NCBI RefSeq assembly: GCF_001747095.1
Contig: NZ_MDGP01000001.1
Location: 3,579,001-3,643,000, forward strand
Length of the DNA stretch: 64,000 nucleotides
Direction: 5' to 3'
Source: Roseivirga sp. 4D4
GTDB lineage: Bacteria > Bacteroidota > Bacteroidia > Cytophagales > Cyclobacteriaceae
The notes under the pieces are model-generated. The model was given only the letters and a program-made list of their open reading frames with translations. It had not been told where the DNA came from and did no database searches. Shown piece by piece: positions 46,143 to 56,330 of this stretch (positions are counted from its first letter, which is position 1; each line of letters begins with the position of its first letter). A program made the translations under genes and the position numbers.

Positions 46143-46173
46143 GTGTGTAAATAATTCCCCAAATTCGGGGAAT
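46143..46173. promoter_or_regulatory. Composite regulatory motif, copy 1 (best copy)
   Basis: GTGTGTAA, three bases, then a perfect inverted repeat ATTCCCC-AAATTC-GGGGAAT. The site lies 23 bp before the receiver gene and 94 bp before the divergent OmpA gene. The same layout recurs at 51060 and 56301. It is a good candidate for the binding site of the NtrC-type regulator encoded next door, perhaps also controlling its own operon. Confidence 0.7.
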
Positions 46174-46196
46174 ATAGTCACTGAAATAGGTCCATT

Positions 46197-46553
46197 ATGA
46201 AGGAAGGCATGACAGCTTTAATTGTTGATGACGAAGAGGATATCGGTTTGATGGTCTCTGTGTTTTTGAAAAAAGCAGGAATCAAGACTACCTACCTAAG
46301 TAGAGTTACACCTGCTTTTAAGCGAGTTGAAGAAGAAACATTCGACTTCTATTTTTTGGATTTGAATTTGCCCGATGGAACAGGGTTTGACTTGTTGCCG
46401 ACCATAAGGCAAAAGGACGCTCAAGCCAAGGTCATCATTATTAGTGCTTACGATGGTCACTTGGAAACTTCCAAAGCAAAAGAGTTTGAAGTAACGGCCT
46501 TCGTCAAAAAACCATTCACAAAGAAAGATATACTTGAAGCCATTGAATTATGA
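46197..46553 (+). CDS. Stand-alone receiver-domain response regulator
   Basis: The 118-residue protein is a single CheY-like receiver: acidic residues in LIVDDEEDIGLM, phospho-acceptor in FYFLDLNLPDGTGFDLL, Thr/Ser in VIIISAYDG and Lys in AFVKKPFTKKDI. With no output domain it probably relays or competes for phosphate. Its stop overlaps the start of the NtrC-type gene by 4 bp. Confidence 0.92.
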   Translation: MKEGMTALIVDDEEDIGLMVSVFLKKAGIKTTYLSRVTPAFKRVEEETFDFYFLDLNLPDGTGFDLLPTIRQKDAQAKVIIISAYDGHLETSKAKEFEVTAFVKKPFTKKDILEAIEL

Positions 46554-47941
46554 GTAAAGAAAGAATTCTAATTATAGATGACGATCCGGATATCTGTCTT
46601 CTATTGAAAAAATACTTGGCCAAAAAGGGCTACGAGACCTTTGTAGCAGAAGATGGCAAACAAGGTGAAAAGTGGCTCAAGGATAATAATGCTGACTTGG
46701 TCTTGTGTGATTTTAAATTGCCTGATTATACGGGCCTTGAAATGCTGCAAAAAATCAAAATCATCGATACAAGAATTCAGGTGGTCATCATTACTGGCTA
46801 CTCTGATGTTCGTATTGCAGTCGAAGCGTTAAAGAAGGGTGCGTATGAATATGTGACGAAACCACTGTATCCGGATGAGATTCTGATCACTATTGAGAAT
46901 GCGCTTAACGCAAGGAGAGATCAAGAAGAGGTAGCCATTCAACCGATAAAAAAGAAGTCTGTATCGGCACCAGCGCCAGAAGAATTCGTGAATGGCGTGA
47001 GCCCCGCTTCTCAGACGGTGATCAAGCATATCGACCTGATCGCACCAACAGATATGTCCGTAATCGTTTTAGGCGAGACAGGTACTGGAAAGGAATATGT
47101 GGCAAAAGCCATTCATAATAGAAGTAAGAGAGCCGGCATGCCCTTTGTCGCCTTAGACTGTGGTGCGCTTCCAAAAGAACTGGCTGGCAGCGAATTGTTC
47201 GGTCATATCAAGGGAGCCTTTACAGGCGCTATCAATGATAAAAGAGGTTGCTTTGAGGCGGCCAATGGGGGTACATTATTCCTAGACGAGTTAGGTAATC
47301 TCTCTTATGACAATCAGGTAAAACTCTTACGCGTACTACAGGAAAGGAGAGTCAAACCTATCGGTAGTAACAAGGAAGTGGCTGTAGATGTAAGGGTAAT
47401 TGTCGCTACGAATGAAAACCTCAAAGAGGCAGTAGCAAGAGATGAATTTAGGGAAGATATATATCATCGCTTAAATGAGTTCAAGATCGAGCTCTCTCCA
47501 CTCAGAGAGCGACCAGATGATATTGAGGTTTTTGCTGAGCACTTTTTACAGTCCGCCAATGCACAATTGGGCAAATCAATCGCAGGCTTTGAGCCGAAGA
47601 CCATGGAGGTACTAAAAGCCTATACTTGGCATGGTAATCTGAGGGAATTGAAAAACGTAGTGAAGCGTTCGGTGCTATTGTGCCAAGATCAATTGATTGG
47701 GCCTATGCATTTACCACAAGAAATACTGAGTCCGGATACTGATGATGTCGGTTCTATGGCTGTTTCATTTAACGGAGAGTTACCCAAAGATTTGAAGTCT
47801 GTGGCAGAAGAGGCAGAGAAAAAAGCCATACTCGCTGTCTTAAGACATACCAATAATAATAAGAGTCAAACAGCTGATTTTTTGAAAGTAGATCGTAAAA
47901 CGCTCTACAATAAACTAAAGGCCTACGAGATAAATATTTAG
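46550..47941 (+). CDS. NtrC-type sigma-54-dependent response regulator
   Basis: The 463-residue protein has a receiver (LIIDDDPDICLL, phospho-acceptor in LVLCDFKLPDYTGLEML, Lys in YVTKPLYPDEI) and an AAA+ sigma-54 interaction domain with Walker A VLGETGTGKEYVAKAIHN, the GAFTGA loop (IKGAFTGAINDKRGCFE) and Walker B FLDELGNLS. A Fis-type HTH ends the protein (FLKVDRKTLYNKLKAYEI). Intact GAFTGA shows it can remodel sigma-54 holoenzyme, so targets need -24/-12 promoters. Between the lone receiver and the kinase in the operon it is the likely regulator of the ATTCCCC sites nearby. Confidence 0.96.
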   Translation: MSKERILIIDDDPDICLLLKKYLAKKGYETFVAEDGKQGEKWLKDNNADLVLCDFKLPDYTGLEMLQKIKIIDTRIQVVIITGYSDVRIAVEALKKGAYEYVTKPLYPDEILITIENALNARRDQEEVAIQPIKKKSVSAPAPEEFVNGVSPASQTVIKHIDLIAPTDMSVIVLGETGTGKEYVAKAIHNRSKRAGMPFVALDCGALPKELAGSELFGHIKGAFTGAINDKRGCFEAANGGTLFLDELGNLSYDNQVKLLRVLQERRVKPIGSNKEVAVDVRVIVATNENLKEAVARDEFREDIYHRLNEFKIELSPLRERPDDIEVFAEHFLQSANAQLGKSIAGFEPKTMEVLKAYTWHGNLRELKNVVKRSVLLCQDQLIGPMHLPQEILSPDTDDVGSMAVSFNGELPKDLKSVAEEAEKKAILAVLRHTNNNKSQTADFLKVDRKTLYNKLKAYEINI

Positions 47942-47944
47942 AGC

Positions 47945-49381
47945 ATGGTGAATATACCGAATACAGAGAGTTTACTGACCAGTGTATTAAATAGTGCACC
48001 GTATGGGATCATGACCTTTAAGTCGATTCGGAATAAGGAAGGAGTAATTGAAGACTTTGAATTCTTGACCGTTAATAAGTCTGCTGTCCAAATGGTGAGT
48101 ATCGCGGCCGATGAACTCGTTGGGAATACTATGATGAATAAGCTGCCTGGAAATAAAGATGCTGGCTTATTCGACAAATATTGTGATGTAGTCAATACAG
48201 GTAATCCTTTGTCTCTCGATCAGCATTATGAAGGAGAACACTTTGATAATTGGTTTAGAATTCAAGCCGAAAAACTTGAGGATGGCTTTGTAGTGAGTTT
48301 TCTTGACATCACCGAGTTTAAGGGTAGGACGGTGGCTCTAGAAAGAAGTGAGTCACGTTATAAAAAACTCTTTTATGAGTCCATGGATGCAATTTTCATT
48401 GCGAACAATGAACTACTCTTCTTAGAAATCAATGATGCCATGGTTAACATCTTCGGATATACCATTGACCAGTTGAGGGCGATCACTTTAAAAGATCTAT
48501 TCAAAGACGAAAATGATTTTTTGAGATTTAACCAAGAGTTTTATAAACACGACAAGGTAGAAGAATTTGAGGCTGAATTGGTGTCTTCAAATAATAAACC
48601 GGTCCATTGTGTTATCAACTTGATCAATCTCTCGCCAGATGAAGATCGGATCAATAGCTATCAGGGAGTAATCAAGGACATATCCAGAAAAAAGCGCGCT
48701 GATCAGGAAATACTTTGGGCGGAGAAGCTATCAATGACGGGAAAAATTGCCCGAAGTATAGCGCATGAAGTGAGAAACCCACTGACCAATCTAAGTCTGG
48801 CTTTAGAGCAATTGAAAGACGAAGTTCCAGAAGAGGTTGAAGATGCTGAGCTGTATTTCAATATTATCAAAAGGAATGCCGATAGAATTGGTACACTGGT
48901 AACAGAGTTGCTAGATTCTTCTAAGCCGAAATCTTTACAACTAAAAGAGCAGCCTCTAAATGAGGTGGTCAAAGAAACTGTAGCCTTGGTAGCTGACAGA
49001 ATTAAGCTCCAGAACATGAAGATGAATGAGTCCTATGATGCAGACTTGCCAGACATTGCACTAGATCACGATCAGATCAAAATTGCCTTGTTGAATATCT
49101 TTATCAACGCCATTGAAGCGATGAAACCAGATCGTGGAGAACTATCGATCAGTACTTACAAAGAAGAAGGTTCGGTGGTACTTGCTGTTACGGATAATGG
49201 TAAAGGAATTCCAAAGGAAAACCTTGGTAAACTGTTCGAACCATTTTTTACGGCAAAGAAAGGTGGAATGGGTTTGGGCTTAACCACTTTCCAAAATATC
49301 ATTCAAAGTCACTTAGGCAGCGTTAAGGTGACTAGTGAGCTTGGCCTTGGAACAACTTTTTATATTTCATTTCCCCAATAG
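47945..49381 (+). CDS. PAS-domain sensor histidine kinase
   Basis: The 478-residue protein has no membrane helices and two PAS-like domains (residues about 1-125 and 135-245; SRYKKLFYESMDAIFIANNE begins the second). The transmitter has HEVRNPLTNLSLALEQL (HisKA with His in AHEVRNP) and an HATPase domain (FINAIEAM, DNGKGIPKENLG, GMGLGLTTFQ). It starts 3 bp after the NtrC-type gene and is presumably its kinase. A cytoplasmic signal, such as redox or a small ligand, is likely. Confidence 0.95.
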   Translation: MVNIPNTESLLTSVLNSAPYGIMTFKSIRNKEGVIEDFEFLTVNKSAVQMVSIAADELVGNTMMNKLPGNKDAGLFDKYCDVVNTGNPLSLDQHYEGEHFDNWFRIQAEKLEDGFVVSFLDITEFKGRTVALERSESRYKKLFYESMDAIFIANNELLFLEINDAMVNIFGYTIDQLRAITLKDLFKDENDFLRFNQEFYKHDKVEEFEAELVSSNNKPVHCVINLINLSPDEDRINSYQGVIKDISRKKRADQEILWAEKLSMTGKIARSIAHEVRNPLTNLSLALEQLKDEVPEEVEDAELYFNIIKRNADRIGTLVTELLDSSKPKSLQLKEQPLNEVVKETVALVADRIKLQNMKMNESYDADLPDIALDHDQIKIALLNIFINAIEAMKPDRGELSISTYKEEGSVVLAVTDNGKGIPKENLGKLFEPFFTAKKGGMGLGLTTFQNIIQSHLGSVKVTSELGLGTTFYISFPQ

Positions 49382-55906: not shown

Positions 55907-56011
55907 TGTTTTGATAAGACTTAGCAAATTTTCATTGATTTAGCGGAACAGCCTGATATTATCACAAAAAAACCCTCTCGAAATGAGAAGGTCATTATTG
56001 TTTCTGCTTTT

Positions 56012-56170
56012 CTATAAGAGCACCTGGCCCAACAAAGACAGTACAAAGAGTACCACAAATAGAAAAAACAAAAACTTTGCGATTTTGGATGTGGCCGAAG
56101 CAACGCCTCTAAAGCCGAATAGCGCAGCAATGACTGCTACAATAAAAAAAACTAGTGCCCAGTAAAGCAT
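56012..56170 (-). CDS. DUF1328 (YtjA-type) mini membrane protein, copy B
   Basis: A 52-residue frame starts at the ATG at 56170: MLYWALVFFIVAVIAALFGF, then RGVASATSKIAKFLFFLFVV and LFVLSLLGQVLL. The G-F-R-G-V-A-S turn between two helices matches copy A at 50765. The two copies share only the family pattern and are not a recent duplication. Upstream lies the composite motif at 56301. It closes on the minus strand before the convergent lipoprotein gene. Confidence 0.85.
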   Translation of the reverse strand: MLYWALVFFIVAVIAALFGFRGVASATSKIAKFLFFLFVVLFVLSLLGQVLL

Positions 56171-56233
56171 AATATAAATTTTTTAAAGTGAAACATTATT
56201 GAACCTGATACTATGTGTATCTACACTTTTAAC

Positions 56234-56250
56234 TCCAAATTGTGAGCCAC
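56234..56250 (-). promoter_or_regulatory. Sigma-54-like promoter of DUF1328 copy B (weak)
   Basis: On the minus strand GTGGCTCACAATTTGGA has TGGCTC at -24 and TTTGGA at -12. The predicted start is about 53 nt before the ATG. The composite motif centre lies about 97 bp upstream of that start. Confidence 0.35.
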
Positions 56251-56300
56251 CTTCTGAAGTCTGTTCTATAGACTTGAAATGGATATTAGCCCAAATTTGA

Positions 56301-56330
56301 GTGTGTAATAATTCCCCGTGTTGAGGACTT
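56301..56330. promoter_or_regulatory. Composite regulatory motif, copy 3
   Basis: GTGTGTAA, two bases, then ATTCCCC-GTGTTG-AGGACTT: the left arm is exact, the right arm degenerate. It lies between the divergent DUF1328 copy B and AI-2E genes, 86 bp before the latter. Confidence 0.55.

What the first reader, a model, noticed from the sequence alone, without database searches (positions are those of the whole stretch)
46143..56330. Shared composite motif ahead of an NtrC-type operon, dps/DUF1328 and AI-2E/DUF1328 genes
Three intergenic sites carry GTGTRTAA, then 2-3 bases, then ATTCCCC, six bases and GGGGAA/AGGACT (46143, 51060, 56301). All sit between divergent genes within 11 kb of one NtrC-type activator. 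The best copy has perfect 7-bp arms. Two gene pairs (DUF1328/dps and DUF1328/AI-2E) and the OmpA/regulator pair share it, which points to one stress regulon. That the NtrC-type protein binds it is inference.
Basis: partly seen in the sequence, partly recalled or inferred. Interest (0 to 1): 0.75.

Follow-up and report, generated by a model that had tools for sequence, protein, structure and literature searches.

The report
Sigma-54 stress-gene enhancer sites
Three look-alike DNA sites between stress-protection genes of a Roseivirga bacterium are most likely landing sites for the neighbouring NtrC-type activator working with sigma-54, and similar sites at matching genes in related bacteria point to an undescribed stress-control circuit.

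Summary
The three composite sites are the only exact copies in the 4.58-Mb genome, and shuffles give none. The window belongs to Roseivirga (relatives named). Comparison re-reads the motif as alternating half-sites, TGYGKA..TTCYMCA..TGNRGAA. A matrix trained only on another family ranks the window sites first to third of 64 kb, the third by a hair. In five Roseivirga species an operator stands upstream of dps and of the regulator operon (only a remnant there in R. thermotolerans). At both places its centre lies 61-64 bp from a conserved sigma-54-type box. In other genomes similar sites stand upstream of an ECF sigma gene, an rpoN-ntrC-kinase operon, an outer-membrane gene beside ntrC, and some dps genes; two of six further dps regions fail the matrix. 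Best reading: the 46550 protein (GAFTGA, Fis HTH) binds these sites as enhancers for sigma-54 transcription of dps, AI-2E/DUF1328 and OmpA. Binding and expression are untested, and several promoters lack the canonical GC of the -12 box. A known kind of system; apparently an undescribed regulon.

The parts
46143..46173 (+). Operator 1: GTGTGTAA, TTCCCC 46155-46160, GGGGAA 46167-46172; ends about 23 bp before the response-regulator start codon
   Evidence: matrix 29.0 bits, 0/400 shuffles; kept in 3 Roseivirga relatives, remnant in a fourth
51060..51089 (+). Operator 2: GTGTATAA, TTCCCC 51072-51077, GGGGAA 51084-51089
   Evidence: 21.5 bits, 0/400 shuffles; operator of other spelling at the aligned place in 4 of 4 relatives
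56301..56328 (+). Operator 3: GTGTGTAA, TTCCCC 56312-56317, GAGGAC 56323-56328 (damaged right arm)
   Evidence: 19.3 bits, 0/400 shuffles of its region, but a chance-like 19.2 exists inside an ORF at 6859
46088..46102 (-). Sigma-54-type box CGGCACGAATTTTTC toward OmpA; -24 box good, -12 lacks the G of GC
   Evidence: GGCACGAAnTTTTC in 5 of 5 Roseivirga; operator centre to GG 63 bp
51140..51156 (+). Sigma-54-type promoter TTGGAATGCTTTTGGCA of dps
   Evidence: GG-N10-GC in 5 of 5 Roseivirga; operator centre to GG 62 bp
56388..56404 (+). Sigma-54-type promoter CTGGCAGGATATTAGCC of AI-2E gene
   Evidence: operator centre to GG 70.5 bp; not tested in relatives
50971..50987 (-). Tentative box TTGGCATAGAATTCTCA toward first DUF1328 gene
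   Evidence: 96 bp from operator centre; weak
56222..56238 (-). Tentative box TTGGAGTTAAAAGTGTA (GG-N10-GT) toward second DUF1328 gene
   Evidence: 84.5 bp from operator centre; GG-N10-GT also upstream of DUF1328 in three relatives by eye
45303..46049 (-). OmpA-domain protein
   Evidence: PF00691
46197..46553 (+). Single-domain response regulator
   Evidence: PF00072
46550..47941 (+). NtrC-type activator: receiver, AAA+ with GAFTGA, Fis-type HTH; proposed binder
   Evidence: PF00072, PF00158, PF02954; sequence
47945..49381 (+). PAS-domain histidine kinase
   Evidence: PF13426, PF00512, PF02518
50765..50929 (-). DUF1328 gene 1
   Evidence: PF07043
51201..51719 (+). Dps (ferritin-like)
   Evidence: PF00210; Dps families below curated cut-off in NCBIfam
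51869..53068 (+). CsbD-like gene (51869-52135) and MscS-type channel (52142-53068), downstream of dps in five Roseivirga
   Evidence: MscS PF00924; CsbD E 1.4e-6, below cut-off, in the R. echinicomitans copy only; synteny
56012..56170 (-). DUF1328 gene 2
   Evidence: PF07043
56416..57480 (+). AI-2E family membrane protein
   Evidence: PF01594

Best explanation
The three sites are enhancers of a two-component, sigma-54-dependent stress regulon. A PAS-domain histidine kinase phosphorylates the NtrC-type regulator encoded at 46550-47941 (inferred). The regulator binds an operator of alternating half-sites TGYGKA..TTCYMCA..TGNRGAA (inferred from conservation and linkage) and opens sigma-54 polymerase at boxes whose GG lies about 62-70 bp from the operator centre. 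This switches on dps (with CsbD-like and MscS genes downstream), AI-2E, probably DUF1328, and OmpA. The copy about 23 bp before the regulator operon's own start codon may also autoregulate it (inferred). In related genomes similar operators serve an ECF sigma gene, an rpoN-ntrC-kinase operon and an outer-membrane gene. Shown: sites, conservation, spacing, gene content. Inferred: binding, activation, signal.
For: Only 3 exact copies in the genome, all beside this regulator. Operators at the aligned places upstream of dps in 4 of 4 Roseivirga relatives, with GG-N10-GC in 5 of 5 species. Operator centre to GG is 62-64 bp at dps and 61-63 bp on the OmpA side in five species each. A matrix from 19 sites of another family ranks the window sites first to third of 64 kb and gives 0/400 shuffles for each. 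In 291 genomes the degenerate pattern has 35 against 3 control matches in the 34 genomes with the ntrC ortholog (hand-summed; partly circular because some training sites lie beside ntrC). New with that scan: sites upstream of an ECF sigma gene (9 of 9 fetched) and upstream of rpoN in rpoN-ntrC-kinase operons (2 of 2 fetched). rpoN present in the genome. In G036 the single genome copy of TGYGTA-N5-TTCYMCA lies about 0.2 kb upstream of a dps gene 1.1 Mb away from ntrC. Recognition-helix stretch DRKTLYNK in 36 of 36 aligned regulators.
Against: No binding or expression data. GG-N10-GC matches are common by chance (one search lists well over a hundred sites in 64 kb at a loose cut-off). The OmpA, outer-membrane and ECF boxes lack the canonical GC of the -12 element. 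dps regions of two ntrC-carrying genomes fail the matrix (G107 173/400, G286 24/400), two are marginal (G036 3/400, G142 8/400). The operon-side site of R. thermotolerans is only a remnant (7/400). Operator spelling differs between families. Paralogs of other specificity were not compared for the HTH. The AI-2E site was not found at that gene in relatives; it was not searched for there.
Confidence: 0.78

Rival explanations
1. The operator belongs to another transcription factor encoded elsewhere; the ntrC operon is only one of its targets, and the sigma-54-like boxes are other conserved promoter elements.
For: Binding is not shown; several boxes lack the GC of the -12 element; the class-wide ntrC orthologs do not carry clear operators nearby.
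Against: Sites recur beside ntrC orthologs in other families, in one genus upstream of rpoN itself in an rpoN-ntrC-kinase operon; spacing to a -24-type GG box is constant in two unrelated promoters of five species; the sites are palindromic as expected for a Fis-type HTH.
Confidence: 0.14
2. The sites are enhancers of this regulator, but the regulon is a narrow envelope or oxidative-stress set rather than a general stress response, and operator 1 mainly represses the regulator's own operon.
For: Only three exact sites in this genome; operator 1 ends about 23 bp before the response-regulator start codon in the window and at the same place in three relatives.
Against: In other genomes similar sites precede an ECF sigma gene, rpoN and unlinked dps genes, which suggests a wider reach.
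Confidence: 0.4
3. The three sites are copies of a small repeat or of a duplicated divergent DUF1328 promoter region without regulatory meaning.
For: Two sites lie at exactly the same distance (131 bp) from two DUF1328 paralogs.
Against: No further copies in the genome; outside the operator the three regions differ; operators are kept in relatives while the surrounding sequence diverges.
Confidence: 0.03

Closest known systems
NtrC/AtoC/ZraR-type enhancer-binding proteins acting with sigma-54
   Same: Receiver, AAA+ with GAFTGA, Fis-type HTH; palindromic sites upstream of GG-N10-GC promoters; cytosolic-looking PAS kinase encoded next door
   Different: Does not reach the NCBIfam cut-offs for AtoC (411.6 of 714), NtrC (388.1 of 558.6) or ZraR (369.9 of 760); operator has an extra TGYGKA half-site; targets are dps, DUF1328, AI-2E, OmpA
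Rrp2-RpoN-RpoS cascade of Borrelia burgdorferi (PMC2940757, PMC3037356; titles and abstract starts seen in search listings)
   Same: An NtrC-type regulator with sigma-54 acting on a second sigma-factor gene, as proposed here for the ECF sigma gene in related genomes
   Different: Second sigma factor is ECF-type, the organisms are unrelated, and here an operator is conserved; regulation is not shown
Computed sigma-54 regulons across phyla (PMC12316311; passages read)
   Same: Predicts sigma-54 control of chaperone genes in Bacteroidota, including Cytophagia
   Different: Promoter-matrix survey; the passages seen name no NtrC-type operator and the text has 0 occurrences of dps
General stress regulons led by partner-switched sigma factors (SigB, EcfG; recalled)
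   Same: Similar target types: Dps, CsbD-like, YtxH, channels
   Different: Here the candidate leader is sigma-54 with an NtrC-type activator

Membership tests
NtrC-type sigma-54 activator (46550 protein) | AAA+ sigma-54 interaction domain with GAFTGA loop | tested here: met
   PF00158 3.6e-67; GAFTGA in the sequence
NtrC-type sigma-54 activator (46550 protein) | Receiver domain and Fis-type HTH | tested here: met
   PF00072 and PF02954
NtrC-type sigma-54 activator (46550 protein) | Sigma-54 encoded in the same genome | tested here: met
   PF04963 2.6e-53 at G000:C1:103485
AtoC, NtrC or ZraR proper | NCBIfam equivalog cut-off | tested here: not met
   All below cut-off
Sigma-54 promoter, dps and AI-2E | GG-N10-GC (-24/-12) | tested here: met
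   dps in 5 of 5 Roseivirga; AI-2E in the window only
Sigma-54 promoter, OmpA side | GG-N10-GC (-24/-12) | tested here: not met
   -24 box conserved, -12 is TC instead of GC in 5 of 5
Enhancer of a sigma-54 activator | Palindromic site upstream of the promoter at suitable distance | tested here: met
   Centre 61-64 bp from GG at two promoters in five species; 70.5 bp at AI-2E
Enhancer of a sigma-54 activator | Bound by the activator | not testable with these tools
   Needs gel shift or ChIP
General stress response regulon | Induced by many unrelated stresses | not testable with these tools
   Only gene content seen

The most novel reading that the evidence does not exclude
This is the core of a sigma-54-led general stress response of Cytophagales (perhaps wider Bacteroidia): a PAS kinase and an NtrC-type activator act through a three-half-site operator on rpoN, an ECF sigma gene, dps and other stress genes, with sigma-54 promoters whose -12 box has drifted from GC (GT and NC forms).
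Probability: 0.33. Interest if true: 0.8.

Novelty: new member of a known kind. Interest (0 to 1): 0.62.

Why it matters
Eight full-text searches (open-licence PMC papers only) listed no experimental study of an NtrC-type/sigma-54 stress regulon in this group; the nearest listed work is a promoter survey (PMC12316311, passages read). A defined operator, one candidate binder and a short target list make it directly testable how these bacteria switch on Dps and related stress genes, and whether sigma-54 heads a cascade onto a second sigma factor.

Tried and rejected
The first candidate for an OmpA-side promoter, CAGGCATTTTGTTGGCA (46104-46120), is not conserved in other Roseivirga and was dropped for CGGCACGAATTTTTC. 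The 190-aa gene and DUF2490 were tried as markers of the operon; they are a separate widespread pair, so those 20 loci became controls. Scoring arms plus GTGTRT by mismatches gave 13 places (some overlapping, 11 distinct) in 717 kb around orthologs, against 1 in 378 kb of control loci and a mean of 2.0 in shuffles. Strict-pattern hits in 5 other genomes of the family were not followed, save the one in G142, which lies about 10 kb from its ntrC. The pattern had a wrong spacer length and is used only for the lead it gave in genus g134. The short pattern is noisy: 69 against 27 control matches in the 34 ntrC genomes (hand-summed). A scan of 28 ntrC loci from outside the order gave 22 places (several overlapping) against a mean of 4.7 in ten shuffles and 2 in the reversed sequences: suggestive only. 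In L119 and L120 the outer-membrane gene has GGGGAA..CCCC in another arrangement, and five other loci printed show no site. Of sites fetched, those of L289, L291 and L295 lie inside called ORFs (in L295 the ORF call starts too far upstream) and those of L290, L292 and L294 have no persuasive target; they are not counted. Distances for three relatives failed because of the search expressions and were redone. No structure prediction was made.
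Full report
WHAT IS THERE. The three composite sites are where the finding puts them. The strict pattern has three copies in the 4,577,373-base genome, all in this 10-kb stretch, and none for the reversed control. They lie between divergent genes: OmpA-domain protein / response regulator-NtrC-kinase operon; DUF1328 / Dps; DUF1328 / AI-2E. The 46550 protein has a receiver, a sigma-54-interacting AAA+ domain with GAFTGA and a Fis-type HTH. The genome has an rpoN gene. The relatives named place the window in Roseivirga.

SAME GENUS. 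Five Roseivirga loci were compared: the window, R. echinicomitans, R. ehrenbergii, R. thermotolerans and R. seohaensis. Regulator, kinase, dps, CsbD-like and MscS genes stay together. Three other genomes of the genus (G149, G192, G431) have neither the kinase nor the ntrC ortholog at the thresholds used and only the general type of Dps. Upstream of the regulator operon the site is kept in R. echinicomitans, R. ehrenbergii and R. seohaensis, while R. thermotolerans keeps TGTGTAA and a TTCTACA half; matrix scores 22.2, 15.4, 22.8 and 8.0, the last reached in 7/400 shuffles. Upstream of dps an operator of different spelling (CTCCCCA..TGTAGA, or TTCCACA..TGAGGAA) stands at the aligned place in all four relatives (0/400 shuffles in three, 1/400 in R. 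seohaensis). The dps box GG-N10-GC is kept in five of five, and GGCACGAAnTTTTC toward the divergent gene in five of five, although that gene is OmpA in two species and a different gene in the others. Operator centre to GG is 62, 62.5, 63.5, 63.5 and 64 bp at dps and 63, 63, 63, 63 and 61 bp on the divergent side. Two unrelated promoters in five species share one geometry; this is the strongest single piece of evidence that the sites are enhancers. The AI-2E box lies at 70.5 bp and the tentative DUF1328 boxes at 84.5 and 96 bp.

OTHER FAMILIES. The ntrC ortholog (E<=1e-150) is in 34 of 291 genomes of the order. In the family labelled f11 a site of the form TGCGKA-N5-TTCCMCA-N3-TGNRGAA lies upstream of an outer-membrane-type gene next to ntrC: by eye in 16 of 24 loci printed, three of them with only the left part clear (the gene was assigned by position, Pfam OMP_b-brl_2 was run on the R. 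echinicomitans copy only). Eight of these aligned show a constant TTGGCACG-type box between site and gene, whose -12 part is not GC. A degenerate pattern gave 99 matches in 291 genomes, 17 of them a tandem array in G243, against 13 for the reversed pattern; in the 34 ntrC genomes 35 against 3, in the other 257 genomes 64 against 10 (hand-summed from the table). The pattern was designed after seeing f11 and Roseivirga sites, so matches beside ntrC in f11 are not independent; the window's three sites do not match it because their second spacer is different or an arm is damaged. New with this scan: (a) a site 177-190 bp upstream of a 171-aa ECF-type sigma gene in 9 of 9 fetched loci (15 such places listed), with a GG-N10-GT box before the gene (Pfam sigma regions 2 and 4 on one of them); (b) a site about 0.1 kb upstream of rpoN in an rpoN-ntrC-kinase operon, 2 of 2 fetched (11 such places listed in one genus), with TTGGATAAAGARTCGTA between site and rpoN in both; (c) a site shared by G142 and G036 beside a 106/107-aa gene, YtxH on the other side in G036 by Pfam. 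dps of G178, about 5 kb from its ntrC, has TGTGTAATAGCTTCCACGGATTGTGGAA. The dps genes of G142 and G036, on another contig and 1.1 Mb away from ntrC, have TGTGTA-N5-TTCTACA upstream.

TEST ON HELD-OUT DATA. A matrix from 19 f11 sites only (10 outer-membrane, 9 ECF) was applied to other genomes. The window sites score 29.0, 21.5 and 19.3, first to third of 64 kb; the next, 19.2, lies inside an ORF at 6859. Each window site is 0/400 in shuffles of its region. Of six further dps regions from ntrC-carrying genomes two are 0/400 (G178, G293), two 3/400 and 8/400 (G036, G142, with a best site other than the one named above), two fail (G286 24/400, G107 173/400). Twenty control dps regions score at most 7.1 (14/400).

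READING OF THE MOTIF. GTGTRTAA is best seen as a further half-site related to TGNRGAA: R. seohaensis has TTGTAGA-TAATA-TTCTACAA upstream of DUF1328, and the spacer from TGYGKA to TTCYMCA is nearly always five bases. The operator then probably holds more than one dimer, as suits an activator that must form hexamers (inference).

PROPOSED MECHANISM. Kinase signal, phosphorylated NtrC-type regulator, binding at the operator, opening of sigma-54 polymerase, transcription of dps and its neighbours, AI-2E, probably DUF1328, and OmpA. Operator 1 can serve the divergent promoter and may tune the regulator's own operon (inference). The single-domain response regulator may buffer phosphate flow (inference). 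In relatives the regulon would reach rpoN and an ECF sigma gene, which would make it a cascade.

LIMITS. No binding or expression evidence. GG-N10-GC is frequent by chance. The -12 element is not canonical at several promoters. DRKTLYNK is invariant in 36 of 36 aligned regulators but was not compared with paralogs. Orthologs at class level (36 of 315 at 1e-140) do not yet carry clear operators. The window type of Dps (62% identity or more) is in 9 of 16 genomes with the ntrC ortholog and in 1 of 14 others; G129 among the others was not scored for ntrC.

VERDICT. Real, conserved, of a known general kind (NtrC-type activator plus sigma-54), apparently an undescribed regulon with stress genes and sigma factors among its likely targets.

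Noticed in passing
49385-50631: The 190-aa gene (no Pfam family) and the DUF2490 gene form a pair that recurs far from ntrC: adjacent in 19 of 20 fetched loci, the other cut by a contig end region.
   Followed up: partly
51785-51845: Between dps and the CsbD-like gene, after a hairpin with a T run, TGTGTAGAAAATACCC and TGTAGTGATTTCTCCACATCATGG resemble further operator copies (matrix 10.2 at 51805; sequence).
   Followed up: no
40205-40235: TGTGGAAAAAAATCCCC / TTCCACACTTTG in a stretch without an ORF of 100 aa, upstream of the gene at 40734; matrix 14.8.
   Followed up: no
L288, L295: In one genus rpoN, an NtrC-type gene (GSFTGA in L288) and a receiver-kinase gene form one operon with the operator upstream of rpoN.
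   Followed up: partly
L277-L284, L296: The conserved box before the 171-aa ECF sigma gene is GG-N10-GT, and that before the outer-membrane gene GG-N10-NC in most loci: possibly a relaxed -12 element of sigma-54 promoters in this group.
   Followed up: partly
G243: A tandem array with a 21-base step (TGCGGAAGAGTTTCCATAA...) mimics the operator 17 times in one genome.
   Followed up: no
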